From the IMG/VR virus record IMGVR_UViG_3300009164_002570, positions 1-21,036 of that record: a DNA stretch of 21,036 bases; one strand, 5' to 3'. This DNA is from a virus. Positions 3 through 6,979 of this stretch are shown one piece after another; the first letter of the stretch is position 1; each line of letters opens with the position of its first letter. The position numbers and the translations under genes were made by a program. The notes beneath the pieces are model-generated. The model did no database searches, was not told the DNA's origin, and saw only the letters and a list, made by a program, of their open reading frames with translations.

Positions 3-725
3 GTTACTCCATTAAGTCTTGGTATCGAAACACTAGGTGGTGTTATGACTAAGATGATTAAAAAGAACACTACAATCCCAACTAAGTTTAGCCAAACTTA
101 CAGTACAGCAGATGACAATCAACCAGCTGTTACAATTAAAGTTTATCAAGGTGAACGTGAGATGGTTACAGGCAATAAATTGCTAGGTGACTTTTCATTA
201 GAAGGCATTGAGCCAGCACCAAGAGGCGCACCACAGATTGAAGTAACATTCGATATTGACGCTAATGGTATCTTAGATGTTAAAGCTAAGGATCAAAAGA
301 CTGGTAAAGAAAAAATGATTACAATCAAAGCAAGCAGTGGCTTATCAGAAGAAGAAGTTGAACGCATGGTAAAAGATGCAGAACTCAATGCAGAGGCTGA
401 TAAGAAAATGGTTGAGTTGATTCAGGCACGTAACAGTGCAGAGGGCACACTATTCGGCTTTAAGAAAGACTTTGAGTTGTATAGTGACAAAGTGTCCGAG
501 GAAGAAAAGACCAAGGCATCAGATGCTATCAAGGCTGTGGAAGACGCAATACAAGGCGATGACCCAGTAGTGATACAAGAAAGCATACCAAAATTGTATG
601 AAGCAATTGGTCCTATTACAAAAGTCAAGCATGAAGAGGAAGAAAAGGCTAAAAAAGCTAATGAACCCAAATCAGATGACAACGTAGTAGATGTTGAACC
701 CGTCGAACCAGCAGAAGCGGTTTAA
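3..725 (+). CDS. dnaK: DnaK (Hsp70) chaperone, C-terminal part
   Basis: The reading frame is open from base 3, so the gene starts upstream and about 240 C-terminal residues are visible. The first residues ([16 protein letters not shown]) are the Hsp70 linker and start of the substrate-binding beta-sandwich. Further hallmarks are [38 protein letters not shown] and [11 protein letters not shown] charged, helical lid follows and the acidic tail [12 protein letters not shown] resembles the DDDVVDAEFEEV tail of bacterial DnaK. Hsp70 binds exposed hydrophobic peptides under ATP control and works with DnaJ and GrpE. The lid is somewhat shorter and more divergent than in Escherichia coli DnaK. An internal ATG at 45 is Met-15 of the visible part (GGVMT), not a start. 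No DnaJ or GrpE gene is in view. The family call is firm. That it is phage-borne rests on context. Confidence 0.95.
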
Positions 726-4939: not shown

Positions 4940-4968
4940 TTGACAGCAAACACAAATTCATGTACAAT
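4940..4968 (+). promoter_or_regulatory. promoter of the RNA locus upstream of DUF2828
   Basis: TTGACA (4940-4945), 17 bp, TACAAT (4963-4968). Predicted start is about 4975, some 18 nt before module 1. No ORF or ribosome site follows, so the product is probably non-coding. Confidence 0.85.
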
Positions 4969-4991: not shown

Positions 4992-5162
4992 TAGGATCGG
5001 TACAGCAATCATAATAATACTATGGATTGCTAAAGCAATTGAGTATAGCTGGAGCACAGAGGTACGCCCGAGGGCCTTGAAGGTTATACTTGAAGATTGT
5101 CTTTAGATAGAGGAGTTTCGATAAGTCTCCTCGATAAAAACAAAAAGTAGACAACGATCCTG
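4992..5162 (+). ncRNA. structured RNA module 1 of 3
   Basis: Part of the gene-free stretch 4918-5551. The closing helix is TAGGATCG (4992-4999) with CGATCCTG (5155-5162), ending in a U-G pair. Internal helices are GCAATC (5005-5010) with GATTGC (5025-5030); TGAGTATA (5040-5047) with TATACTTG (5085-5092), eight pairs; GCC-CGAG-GGC (5066-5075); TTGTC (5097-5101) with GACAA (5150-5154), stacked on the closing helix; and GAGGAG (5110-5115) with CTCCTC (5127-5132) around an 11-nt loop starting TTTCGAT. An alternative pairing, GATTGC with GCAATT around TAAA, is possible. The 5' signature GGATCGGTACAGCA is shared with modules 2 and 3. No known RNA family was recognised; tmRNA, RNase P, 6S and group I motifs are absent. 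Confidence 0.7.
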
Positions 5163-5175
5163 CTTTCATTCATTA

Positions 5176-5411
5176 TGGGATGTGTTCAGCATAACCAAAC
5201 AACTTAACTTACTGCTATTGAAGTTGGTCGTAGGACAGTAGAAATACTCTTAGTTTACTAAGCGGCGATGGAATAGTTGACAGATTGGAAAGACATTCTA
5301 TGTTTCTAGTGACAGACACAAGTACTAGATAGTCAACATGAATTGTTGATATGGACCGAGTGACATAATTGGTCAGTCCAGAAAAATAAACTAACTGTCA
5401 CGAACATCCCG
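5176..5411 (+). ncRNA. structured RNA module 2 of 3
   Basis: The closing helix is TGGGATG (5176-5182) with CATCCCG (5405-5411), again ending in a U-G pair and followed by TGTTCAGCA. Internal elements: CAACTT (5200-5205) with AAGTTG (5221-5226), whose loop holds TACTG (5210-5214) complementary to CAGTA (5236-5240), a possible H-type pseudoknot; CTTAG-TTTA-CTAAG (5249-5262); GTTGAC (5276-5281) with GTCAAC (5332-5337) enclosing TCTAGT (5305-5310) with ACTAGA (5324-5329); and TGGAC (5352-5356) with GTCCA (5376-5380), a CGAG bulge, then TGAC with GTCA around a 7-nt loop. TGTCAC (5396-5401) could instead pair with either of two GTGACA copies, so conformational switching is possible. No U-rich terminator follows. 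Confidence 0.65.
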
Positions 5412-5426
5412 TTTACCTAAAACACA

Positions 5427-5455
5427 TTTACATTATATCAAAACAGTGATATAAT
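5427..5455 (+). promoter_or_regulatory. promoter of the DUF2828/TROVE-vWA gene
   Basis: TTTACA (5427-5432), 17 bp, TATAAT (5450-5455). Predicted start is about 5462, one or two bases before module 3, so module 3 would form the 5' end of the mRNA. Confidence 0.85.
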
Positions 5456-5462
5456 TCTTTTT

Positions 5463-5520
5463 TAGGATGCTTTCAGCAACTTTAAAATTTCAACCATAAT
5501 GAAACCAAAAGCGCATCCTG
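5463..5520 (+). ncRNA. structured RNA module 3 of 3, 5' leader of DUF2828 mRNA
   Basis: The closing helix is TAGGATGC (5463-5470) with GCATCCTG (5513-5520), eight pairs with the same terminal U-G. TTTCAGCA follows the 5' strand as in the other modules. Inside is TTTCA (5488-5492) with TGAAA (5500-5504) around the 7-nt loop ACCATAA, which resembles a CAT anticodon loop apart from C in place of U33. The module ends 14 bases before the AGGAG ribosome site. At the start of the message it is well placed for autoregulation by the encoded Ro60-like protein, which is inference. Confidence 0.7.
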
Positions 5521-5551
5521 TTGCATAACACACACAAGGAAGGAGTACACT

Positions 5552-6979
5552 ATGTCAACATTTGTAGAAGCAGTAGCAAACCAAGAAGCCCGTACCACTA
5601 ATGGCATGAAGGCACGTAAGTCAACCGCAAATGCTTGCGTTGATTTGTTCTATAACATCGGTGCAAGCCGAGGCAAGAACATCATACCCGCATTCACTGC
5701 GGCTTATGTTGAAAATCCTGACTTGGCATTACGTATTGTCCAATGGGCACGTGATGCACGTGGTGGATCCGGCGAACGTGAATTGTTTCGTCAAGTACTA
5801 ATTCACTTGGAACTAACTAACCCAGAAGATGCTAGCCGTCTATTGGTTAAGATTCCTGAATTGGGTCGTTACGATGACTTGCTTGTGTTTAAGACTAAGA
5901 CTCTTAAGGAACAAGCATACACTATGTTGGGTGATGCATTGCGGGCACGTAATGGATTGGCTGCAAAGTGGACTCCACGCAAGGGTGATGTTGCACGTGA
6001 AATCCGTGAATTCTTTGGCATGAGTCCAAAGCAATATCGTAAGAGCCTTGTTGCACTAACCAATGTTGTTGAAACACAAATGTGTGCAAACGATTGGGAT
6101 AACATCAACTACAACCATGTTCCTTCAGTGGCACATGCACGTTACAAGAAGGCATTTGGTCGTCATGGTACAACCTATGCAGAATATGTAACTAAGTTGG
6201 TTAAGGGCGAAGATGGTGCCAAGATAAACGCTGGTGCAGTGTTCCCTTACGATGTACTGAAGGGTGCTATCCAAGACTACAGTCGCAAGGTTATGACCAA
6301 GACTGAATTGGACGCAATGCAAGCCCAATGGGATGCATTACCAAACTATATAGGTGACGCTAACGTGTTGCCAATGGTTGACAGTTCAGGTTCTATGACT
6401 TGTAGTGCTGGTGGTTATGGTAGCAAGAGTACTTTGTCTTGTTTGGATGTTGCAATCTCATTGGGATTGTACTTTGCAGACAAGAACACTGGTAAGTTCA
6501 AGGACACGTTCTTGACTTTCAGTCGTACTCCAAAGCTGGTTACTCTAAAGGGTAACATCAATCAAAAGATTGACCAAATGAACACTGGTGAAGTCGCTAA
6601 CACCGACTTGAACAAGGCATTTGATTTGGTACTTAAGACTGCGGTAGATAACAATGTCCCTCAAGCAGAAATGCCAGGTACAATCGTTATCTTCAGTGAC
6701 ATGCAATTTGATGCAGGTGTTCATCACGATGACTCTGCAATCGAAATGATAGCACGTAAGTACGAAGTTGCAGGTTACGAACTACCTAAGGTAGTATTCT
6801 GGAACTTGAATGCCGCATACGGTAACGCACCAGTTAAGTTTAACAAGGCAGGTGTTGCGCTAGTCTCAGGATTTAGCCCAGCAATTGCTCAAAGCATTCT
6901 ATCTGGTAACATGGATGACTTCTCACCGGAAGCAATCATGTTGAAGACCGTTATGAAGGATCGCTACGACCTAGCGTAA
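5552..6979 (+). CDS. DUF2828 / TROVE-vWA (Ro60-like) protein
   Basis: 475 residues. Residues 1-265 are the helical RNA-binding part and 270-475 a von Willebrand A domain. Family blocks I recognise as DUF2828 include RDARGGSGERELFR (67-80), IPELGRYDDLLVF (101-113), AAKWTPRKGD, FGMSPKQYRKSL, CANDWDNINYNHVPS (178-192), KINAGAVFPYDVLKG and LPKVVFWNLN. The vWA metal site is intact: DSSGS (277-281), T351 in NTDLNKAF and D383 in FSDMQFD. DUF2828 is organised like the TROVE protein Ro60, which holds Y RNAs and misfolded RNAs. The start has AAGGAAGGAGT 4-5 bases upstream. It has its own promoter, three RNA modules upstream and a terminator plus Y-like stem downstream. RNA binding and partners are inferred. 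Confidence 0.85.
   Translation: MSTFVEAVANQEARTTNGMKARKSTANACVDLFYNIGASRGKNIIPAFTAAYVENPDLALRIVQWARDARGGSGERELFRQVLIHLELTNPEDASRLLVKIPELGRYDDLLVFKTKTLKEQAYTMLGDALRARNGLAAKWTPRKGDVAREIREFFGMSPKQYRKSLVALTNVVETQMCANDWDNINYNHVPSVAHARYKKAFGRHGTTYAEYVTKLVKGEDGAKINAGAVFPYDVLKGAIQDYSRKVMTKTELDAMQAQWDALPNYIGDANVLPMVDSSGSMTCSAGGYGSKSTLSCLDVAISLGLYFADKNTGKFKDTFLTFSRTPKLVTLKGNINQKIDQMNTGEVANTDLNKAFDLVLKTAVDNNVPQAEMPGTIVIFSDMQFDAGVHHDDSAIEMIARKYEVAGYELPKVVFWNLNAAYGNAPVKFNKAGVALVSGFSPAIAQSILSGNMDDFSPEAIMLKTVMKDRYDLA

What the first reader, a model, noticed from the sequence alone, without database searches (positions are those of the whole stretch)
4992..5520. Three paralogous RNA modules with a shared signature and covarying stems, upstream of a Ro60-like gene
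Three separate stretches start with the ungapped pattern U-R-GGAU-S-N-N-U-W-CAGCA (4992, 5176, 5463) and end with S-AUCC-Y-G (to 5162, 5411, 5520). The ends pair in each case with the same terminal U-G pair. The pairs change together: A-U in modules 1 and 3 but G-C in module 2; C-G in module 1 but G-C in modules 2 and 3. That is compensatory change between copies, strong sign of selected RNA structure. The modules differ greatly in size (about 171, 236 and 58 nt), as if one terminal scaffold carries different inserts. No ORF is present, and two consensus promoters flank the locus. I recognise no known RNA class. Beside a DUF2828/TROVE-vWA gene, they may be its RNA partners.
Basis: partly seen in the sequence, partly recalled or inferred. 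Interest (0 to 1): 0.88.

Follow-up and report, generated by a model that had tools for sequence, protein, structure and literature searches.

The report
Phage Ro-protein RNAs mimicking tRNA parts
Upstream of a Ro60-like gene, this phage has three members of a large, apparently undescribed RNA family found beside such genes in very different phages; each member pairs the same 'handle' with a different payload, often a copy of part of a transfer RNA, and the handle resembles an RNA class thought unique to social amoebae.

Summary
The three modules share an end stem plus an unpaired CAGCA(A) box. The same architecture occurs on the gene strand near Ro-like (DUF2828/DUF7788) genes in 71 of 84 diverse viral loci (215 forward, 0 reverse hits) and in 21 of 22 isolated Ro-encoding phages, with different but compensating stem sequences. 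A covariance model built only from isolated phages finds the window's third module at E=3.7e-10. Of 29 contigs found by the RNA pattern alone, 23 carry the Ro-like gene. The neighbouring protein is predicted to have the Ro60 fold.

Payloads are modular. About 60-nt members often carry an anticodon stem-loop mimic (78/245; 2.2 expected). The 90-135-nt members carry a T-arm (112/153; 0.3 expected), in the YrlA permuted order or as a whole tRNA body. The handle also matches Dictyostelium Class I RNA (all five diagnostic bases in module 3), below Rfam's cut-off.

Best reading: phage Y-RNA-like partners of a Ro protein that display tRNA mimics as adaptors or decoys for tRNA-directed enzymes. Family and gene association are shown. 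Binding and function are inferred.

The parts
4940..4968 (+). Sigma-70-like promoter (TTGACA-17-TACAAT) upstream of module 1
   Evidence: 11 of 12 consensus bases; TTGACA-17-TATAAT also precedes the array in L035
4992..5162 (+). Module 1 (M1): handle UAGGAUCG / CGAUCCUG plus CAGCAA box; about 170-nt structured payload with a T-arm-like hairpin (GAGGAGU-UUCGAUA-AGUCUCCUC)
   Evidence: 18 of 32 consensus pairs with compensatory change over 18 homologues
5176..5411 (+). Module 2 (M2): handle UGGGAUGU / ACAUCCCG plus CAGCA box; about 235-nt multi-hairpin payload, no tRNA-like part recognised
   Evidence: 20 of 35 consensus pairs with compensatory change over 23 homologues, including the terminal pair
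5427..5455 (+). Second promoter (TTTACA-17-TATAAT, extended -10) with a perfect 9-bp palindrome ATTATATCA...TGATATAAT (5432-5440 / 5447-5455) over the -10
   Evidence: L035 and L075 have different palindromes at the same place
5463..5521 (+). Module 3 (M3): short 'Class I-like' RNA in the leader of the Ro-like gene: handle UAGGAUGC / GCAUCCUGU, box UUUCAGCAA, inner 5-bp hairpin UUUCA-ACCAUAA-UGAAA (anticodon-loop-like in many orthologues; here C instead of U at position 33)
   Evidence: Cross-clade model R1: 43.9 bits, E=3.7e-10; Rfam Dicty_Class_I_RNA 26.0 bits, 1-56/56, below the 41.5 cut-off
5536..5545 (+). Ribosome-binding site (AAGGAAGGAG) between M3 and the start codon
   Evidence: Sequence
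5552..6979 (+). Ro60-like protein, 475 aa: DUF2828 + DUF7788 (vWA with MIDAS residues D277, S279, S281); phrog_850 'RNA-binding protein'
   Evidence: Pfam E=4.5e-41 and 1.1e-27; PHROG E=3e-141; AlphaFold2 pLDDT 83.6; top PDB folds are TROVE/Ro60

Best explanation
The three modules are noncoding RNAs (M3 possibly also acting as the gene's leader) of a phage-wide family that are the RNA partners of the adjacent Ro60-like protein. A common handle, meaning a 6-9 bp stem joining the RNA's ends plus an unpaired UWCAGCAA box, is what the Ro-like ring protein binds (inferred). The rest of each RNA is an exchangeable payload (shown). Payloads are very often tRNA parts: an anticodon stem-loop, a T-arm, a permuted T-arm/acceptor/D-arm domain as in YrlA, or a whole tRNA body whose acceptor stem is replaced by the handle (shown by sequence). 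The most likely action, like a set of Y RNAs, is that the payloads engage enzymes that act on tRNA, either as decoys for host tRNA-cleaving defences or as adaptors that bring tRNA ends, nucleases, ligases or modification enzymes to the Ro particle (inferred). The copy in the gene's leader may also let the protein regulate its own synthesis (inferred).
For: Association with the gene: 215 forward vs 0 reverse RNAs in 89 diverse Ro loci, 71 of 84 with one within 1 kb upstream; 37 vs 3, with 1.15 expected, in 20 isolated phages; 21 of 22 isolated Ro phages have members; 23 of 29 contigs found by RNA pattern alone carry DUF7788 against 673 of 50,697 phage records with the Ro-like gene. Structure: 115 of 148 CAGCAA boxes upstream of Ro have a 6-nt complement followed by G, against 8.7 with swapped downstream sequence; the 7th stem pair, not required in selection, is paired in 27 of 28 with 11 double changes; M1 and M2 covary. 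Independent model: R1 finds 13 of 13 huge-phage contigs at E 2e-12 to 4e-6, Ro-less control phages none below 0.02. Ro fold. tRNA mimicry; YrlA domain.
Against: No expression or binding data exist for these loci. The published high transcription beside the Ro-like gene of Listeria phage CKA15 (PMC12282133) could not be matched to my RNAs and may concern larger neighbouring RNAs. In GAP32, BF, nt-1 and others the RNAs lie far from the Ro gene, in tRNA clusters. M2 shows no tRNA-like part, M1 only a partial one, and the window's M3 has C instead of U33. One Ro phage (PMS3) shows no member. The decoy/adaptor action is not tested by any of this. In Salmonella, YrlA was reported not to be cut by the anticodon nuclease (PMC7790460), which allows an inhibitor but not a sacrificial substrate.
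Confidence: 0.72

Rival explanations
1. M3 and its leader-positioned relatives are mainly cis-regulatory: a 5'-UTR element through which the Ro-like protein (or translation state) controls its own mRNA; M1 and M2 are upstream leftovers or extra binding sites.
For: In the window a promoter ends 8 nt before M3 and M3 is followed by the RBS and start codon. In 54 of 85 diverse loci the last RNA ends within 100 nt of the gene's start. In DLP_6 the RNA lies next to the RBS.
Against: Many members lie kilobases away among tRNA genes or downstream of the gene. Large members covary in their payloads. The tRNA-mimic payloads are not needed for a leader operator.
Confidence: 0.12
2. The RNAs are simply bacteriophage YrlA Y RNAs, already known; the short ones are degraded or minimal versions.
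For: Long members carry the YrlA domain order T-arm, stem, D-arm and sit beside a Ro-fold gene. Y RNAs in mycobacteriophages have been reported (cited in PMC12282133).
Against: No member in 26 genomes reaches the YrlA cut-off. The YrlA model's ends do not coincide with the handle. About 245 short members form a coherent class with their own hairpin. None of the window's three modules matches YrlA.
Confidence: 0.12
3. A repeated selfish or regulatory DNA element (for example, remnants of inserted tRNA genes or processing signals) without RNA function.
For: Copies are scattered, multiple per genome, and near tRNA genes.
Against: Double compensatory changes, strict strand orientation with the Ro gene, and phage-specific stem sequences with a constant box spacing.
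Confidence: 0.02

Closest known systems
YrlA (RF02553), bacterial Y RNA with tRNA-like domain
   Same: Encoded with a Ro60-fold protein; the 90-135-nt members carry T-arm, closed acceptor-like stem and D-arm in the same permuted order
   Different: Different terminal handle (UWCAGCAA box, CUGUU end); below the Rfam cut-off everywhere; most members are other classes (about 60-nt anticodon mimics, whole tRNA bodies, 150-250-nt payloads); many copies per phage
Dictyostelium Class I RNA (RF01414)
   Same: About 60 nt, short end stem kept by compensatory change, adjacent 11-nt motif (T3, C6, C9, A10, A11 all present in M3; exact CCUUACAGCAA in Aeromonas phage 4_4572), 3' end CUGU with C paired to the 5' G, many genes per genome (PMC7919456)
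   Different: Below the Rfam cut-off; one nucleotide less between the 5' G and the motif; sigma-70 instead of DUSE promoters; the known amoeba partner is an RRM protein; long members have no amoeba counterpart
Vertebrate and Deinococcus Y RNAs with Ro60/Rsr
   Same: RNA ends paired in a stem that carries the presumed Ro-binding site; variable module at the other end (established knowledge)
   Different: No Rfam Y RNA hit; different box sequence
Phage tRNAs that counter tRNA-cleaving defences (T5 tRNA-Tyr, PMC11555353)
   Same: Phage RNAs presenting tRNA features, in tRNA clusters
   Different: Here the RNAs are tRNA fragments on a handle, not functional tRNAs; counter-defence is untested

Membership tests
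Ro60/TROVE protein family (the neighbouring gene) | Ro60 fold: helical-repeat ring plus vWA domain | tested here: met
   AlphaFold2 pLDDT 83.6; the seven PDB hits below E=0.001 are all TROVE/Ro60/Rsr
Ro60/TROVE protein family (the neighbouring gene) | Pfam TROVE domain by sequence | tested here: not met
   Pfam gives DUF2828 + DUF7788, no TROVE match at E<=1
Ro60/TROVE protein family (the neighbouring gene) | Binds Y RNA / misfolded RNA | not testable with these tools
   No binding data
YrlA Y RNA (RF02553) | Score above the Rfam gathering threshold | tested here: not met
   0 of 26 phage genomes; no YrlA match on the window's modules
YrlA Y RNA (RF02553) | tRNA-like domain: T-arm and D-arm | tested here: inconclusive
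   Met for 90-135-nt members elsewhere; not found in the window's M2 and M3, only a T-arm-like hairpin in M1
YrlA Y RNA (RF02553) | Encoded with a Ro60 orthologue | tested here: met
Dictyostelium Class I RNA (RF01414) | Short end stem maintained by compensatory change | tested here: met
Dictyostelium Class I RNA (RF01414) | 11-nt motif with T3, C6, C9, A10, A11 | tested here: met
   M3 GCUUUCAGCAA has all five; M1 four; M2 three (against PMC7919456)
Dictyostelium Class I RNA (RF01414) | Score above the Rfam gathering threshold (41.5) | tested here: not met
   Best 34.5 bits, E=1.4e-5; M3 26.0 bits
Dictyostelium Class I RNA (RF01414) | DUSE promoter about 60 nt upstream | not tested
   Phage loci have sigma-70-like promoters
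Vertebrate Y RNA | Rfam Y RNA model match | tested here: not met
   No match on the window's modules up to E=5

The most novel reading that the evidence does not exclude
The phage handle RNAs and the Class I RNAs of social amoebae are one RNA class, recognised by Ro/DUF2828-type proteins, that spans viruses and eukaryotes (DUF2828/DUF7788 proteins also occur in giant viruses). In phages it has become a modular library of tRNA-part decoys against tRNA-targeting immunity.
Probability: 0.25. Interest if true: 0.96.

Novelty: new variant of a known kind. Interest (0 to 1): 0.88.

Why it matters
Hundreds of phages (673 records, among them Felix O1-like, Vibrio, Listeria, Campylobacter and mycobacteriophages) encode a Ro60-like protein of unknown purpose. 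This finding supplies its likely RNA partners, a recognition rule (end stem + UWCAGCAA, 10-nt spacing) and a search model. The exchangeable tRNA-part payloads make a direct, testable link to tRNA-cleaving phage defence and RNA repair. The match to Dictyostelium Class I RNA, described as unique to social amoebae and linked to their multicellular development, suggests a protein family to test as its partner.

Tried and rejected
Chance: rejected by strand, shuffle, swapped-partner and reversed-pattern controls. Bacterial chromosomes: a scan with a degenerate pattern gave only scattered single hits without the extra conserved A after CAGCA (6 of 24 against 375 of 420 in viruses); I took these as background, not relatives. 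Known Rfam family: none over threshold. Dictyostelium CM as proof of homology: not claimed, because a Ro-less phage (T4) also gave E=0.0024 at a site without the family architecture, although 13 of 26 Ro phages score below 0.01, most at independently defined sites. I did not equate the highly transcribed CKA15_059-061 of Listeria phage CKA15 with these RNAs; in LP-048 the likely counterparts are larger neighbours. Several key Y RNA papers are not held, so prior reports in mycobacteriophages rest on citations in other papers. No paper in the library links DUF2828 with phage or RNA. A Pfam TROVE match was expected and not found; the fold comparison settled it.

Full report
What is in the window. 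The window is a 21-kb phage fragment with 11 tRNA genes. Between two small ORFs and a 475-aa gene at 5552-6979 lies a noncoding stretch holding the three modules exactly as described. The gene is DUF2828 + DUF7788 by Pfam and phrog_850 'RNA-binding protein'. A predicted structure (pLDDT 83.6), built from an alignment of 50 relatives with invariant MIDAS residues, matches solved Ro60 proteins and little else: TROVE domain 9kop, Ro60 of Thermus phage phiLo 9l5y, Ro autoantigen 1yvr, D. radiodurans Rsr 2nvo. So it has the Ro60 fold without a Pfam TROVE match.

The modules are a family. In 80 close relatives the modules recur upstream of the gene in changing number and order, and further copies lie kilobases away. 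The consensus is UUAGGAU-N5-CAGCAA ... AUCCUGUU. The pattern hits every related contig searched and never its reversed control. A position not in the pattern, the base after CAGCA, is A in 375 of 420 viral hits but 6 of 24 chance hits in bacterial genomes.

The rule is general. In isolated phages with 30-47% identical Ro-like proteins the same rule holds with other stem sequences: paired base 1, G, eight bases, then CAGCA, and after the payload the complement ending C-U/A-G. Twenty phages gave 37 forward and 3 reverse hits in 7.4 kb around the gene, with 1.15 expected: Synechococcus phage BUCT-ZZ01 (3), Listeria LP-048 (3), Aeromonas 4_4572 (about 8), Felix O1-like Alf5 and SFPB (4 each), Mycobacterium Rumpelstiltskin (3), Klebsiella phi1_175008, Campylobacter CPX, DLP_6 and S13. 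Others have them elsewhere in the genome, in or near tRNA clusters (nt-1, Ahp1, phiWae14, BF, GAP32, Ci1, Milchi) or with a slightly different first pair (PJN02, EF1 and Staphylococcus S-CoN_Ph14 directly beside the Ro gene; phiM12). Only Mammaliicoccus PMS3 gave none. In 89 metagenomic loci with proteins mostly 44-52% identical to the queries: 215 forward, 0 reverse, 71 of 84 with an RNA within 1 kb upstream.

Controls against circularity. Taking every CAGCAA within 1 kb upstream without regard to pairing, 115 of 148 have a perfect 6-nt complement followed by G downstream. With downstream sequences swapped among loci the mean is 8.7 and the maximum 19. On the minus strand it is 13 of 347 and inside the Ro ORF 2 of 42. 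The 7th stem pair, not demanded in selection, is paired in 27 of 28 with 11 double changes. Model R1, built from isolated phages only, finds the window's M3 at E=3.7e-10 and members in 13 of 13 huge-phage contigs (best E 1.7e-12 to 3.9e-6). Seven Ro-less phages give nothing below 0.02. Of 29 contigs found through the RNA pattern alone, 23 carry DUF7788; the Ro-like gene occurs in 673 of 50,697 phage records overall. M1 and M2 homologues covary over the payload too.

Payloads are tRNA parts. Among 541 crudely non-redundant RNAs, 78 of 245 short ones carry a stem plus 7-nt loop of anticodon type (C/U-U-NNN-R-A; 2.2 expected in shuffles), mostly with 5-bp stems. The anticodon triplets vary (UUU 19, UGU 14, UCU 7, UGA 5, others), and position 36 is U in 59 and A in 13 of 78. 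In the 69-89-nt class 12 of 24, and in the 90-135-nt class 112 of 153, carry a T-arm (expected 0.0 and 0.3). Two layouts occur. One is permuted (T-arm, closed acceptor-like stem, D-arm), the YrlA design, which Rfam's YrlA model recognises below its cut-off. The other is a normal-order tRNA body whose acceptor stem is replaced by the handle (L375 3801, L151 2286, L398 3364). These counts are not corrected for phylogeny, but the excess is far beyond what redundancy is likely to give. In the window, M1 has a T-arm-like hairpin, M3 a hairpin whose orthologues are anticodon-like (window loop ACCAUAA; L035 CUGUAAA), and M2 nothing recognisable.

Resemblance to Dictyostelium Class I RNA. The amoeba RNAs are 42-65 nt, with a 6-bp end stem under compensatory change, an 11-nt motif with T3, C6, C9, A10, A11, and a 3' end CUGU, and were reported as unique to dictyostelids (PMC7919456). 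M3 has all five motif bases and the CUGU end, and two RNAs of Aeromonas phage 4_4572 carry the exact 11-mer CCUUACAGCAA. The amoeba-trained Rfam model gives E<0.01 in 13 of 26 Ro phages, most at sites I had defined independently (for example 4_4572, SFPB, LP-048, BUCT-ZZ01, phi1_175008), best 34.5 bits. No score passes 41.5, and T4 gives one E=0.0024 hit without the architecture. I treat this as a strong lead, not membership. DUF2828/DUF7788 proteins also appear in giant viruses, which makes a eukaryotic branch conceivable.

How it most likely works. Shown: family, handle, payload exchange, tRNA mimicry, Ro-fold neighbour, genetic linkage. Inferred: the ring protein grips the handle, as Ro60 grips the Y RNA stem, and the payload contacts tRNA-directed enzymes. 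Decoy is favoured by the varied anticodon-loop payloads, the phages' tRNA arrays, and the proposal that YrlA could competitively inhibit an anticodon nuclease (PMC7790460). Adaptor is favoured by D. radiodurans Rsr-Y RNA-PNPase as summarised in PMC12282133 and by RNA ligase or RtcB genes near the Ro gene in BF, GAP32 and LP-048. Autoregulation through the leader copy is plausible. In Listeria phage CKA15 the Ro-like protein was found in virions, and noncoding loci within 2 kb upstream make up 7-34% of all transcripts (PMC12282133). I could not show these are the same RNAs.

Verdict. Works like: Y RNAs. Member of: neither YrlA nor Class I RNA by the tested thresholds. It is a new, large, modular variant of Ro-associated RNAs.

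Noticed in passing
window 5432-5455; L035 and L075 about 60 nt upstream of the leader RNA: The promoter before the leader RNA contains an inverted repeat over its spacer/-10 whose sequence differs between relatives (ATTATATCA/TGATATAAT; CTACAGTT/AACTGTAG) while the palindrome is kept: a likely operator.
   Followed up: partly
L329 (Listeria phage LP-048) 2003-2420 and 2424-3040: Two larger noncoding stretches, each behind a TTGACA promoter, the first ending in a tRNA-like gene; probable counterparts of the extremely highly transcribed CKA15_059-061 (PMC12282133).
   Followed up: no
L449 (Staphylococcus phage S-CoN_Ph14) 3001-4511: The Ro-like gene is annotated as two overlapping CDSs, suggesting a frameshift or programmed frameshift.
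   Followed up: no
BFVD fold matches of the window protein: Ro-like DUF2828/DUF7788 proteins in Pithovirus LCPAC304, Cafeteria roenbergensis virus, a mimivirus and Marseillevirus LCMAC202; whether CAGCAA-box RNAs accompany them is unknown.
   Followed up: no
L082, L087, L329: An RNA ligase gene lies one or two genes upstream of the Ro-like gene in phages BF and GAP32, and RtcB 1.3 kb downstream in LP-048, suggesting an RNA-repair neighbourhood.
   Followed up: no
window 3-725: The first ORF reads like the C-terminal part of a DnaK chaperone, unusual in a phage tRNA region (identified by eye only).
   Followed up: no
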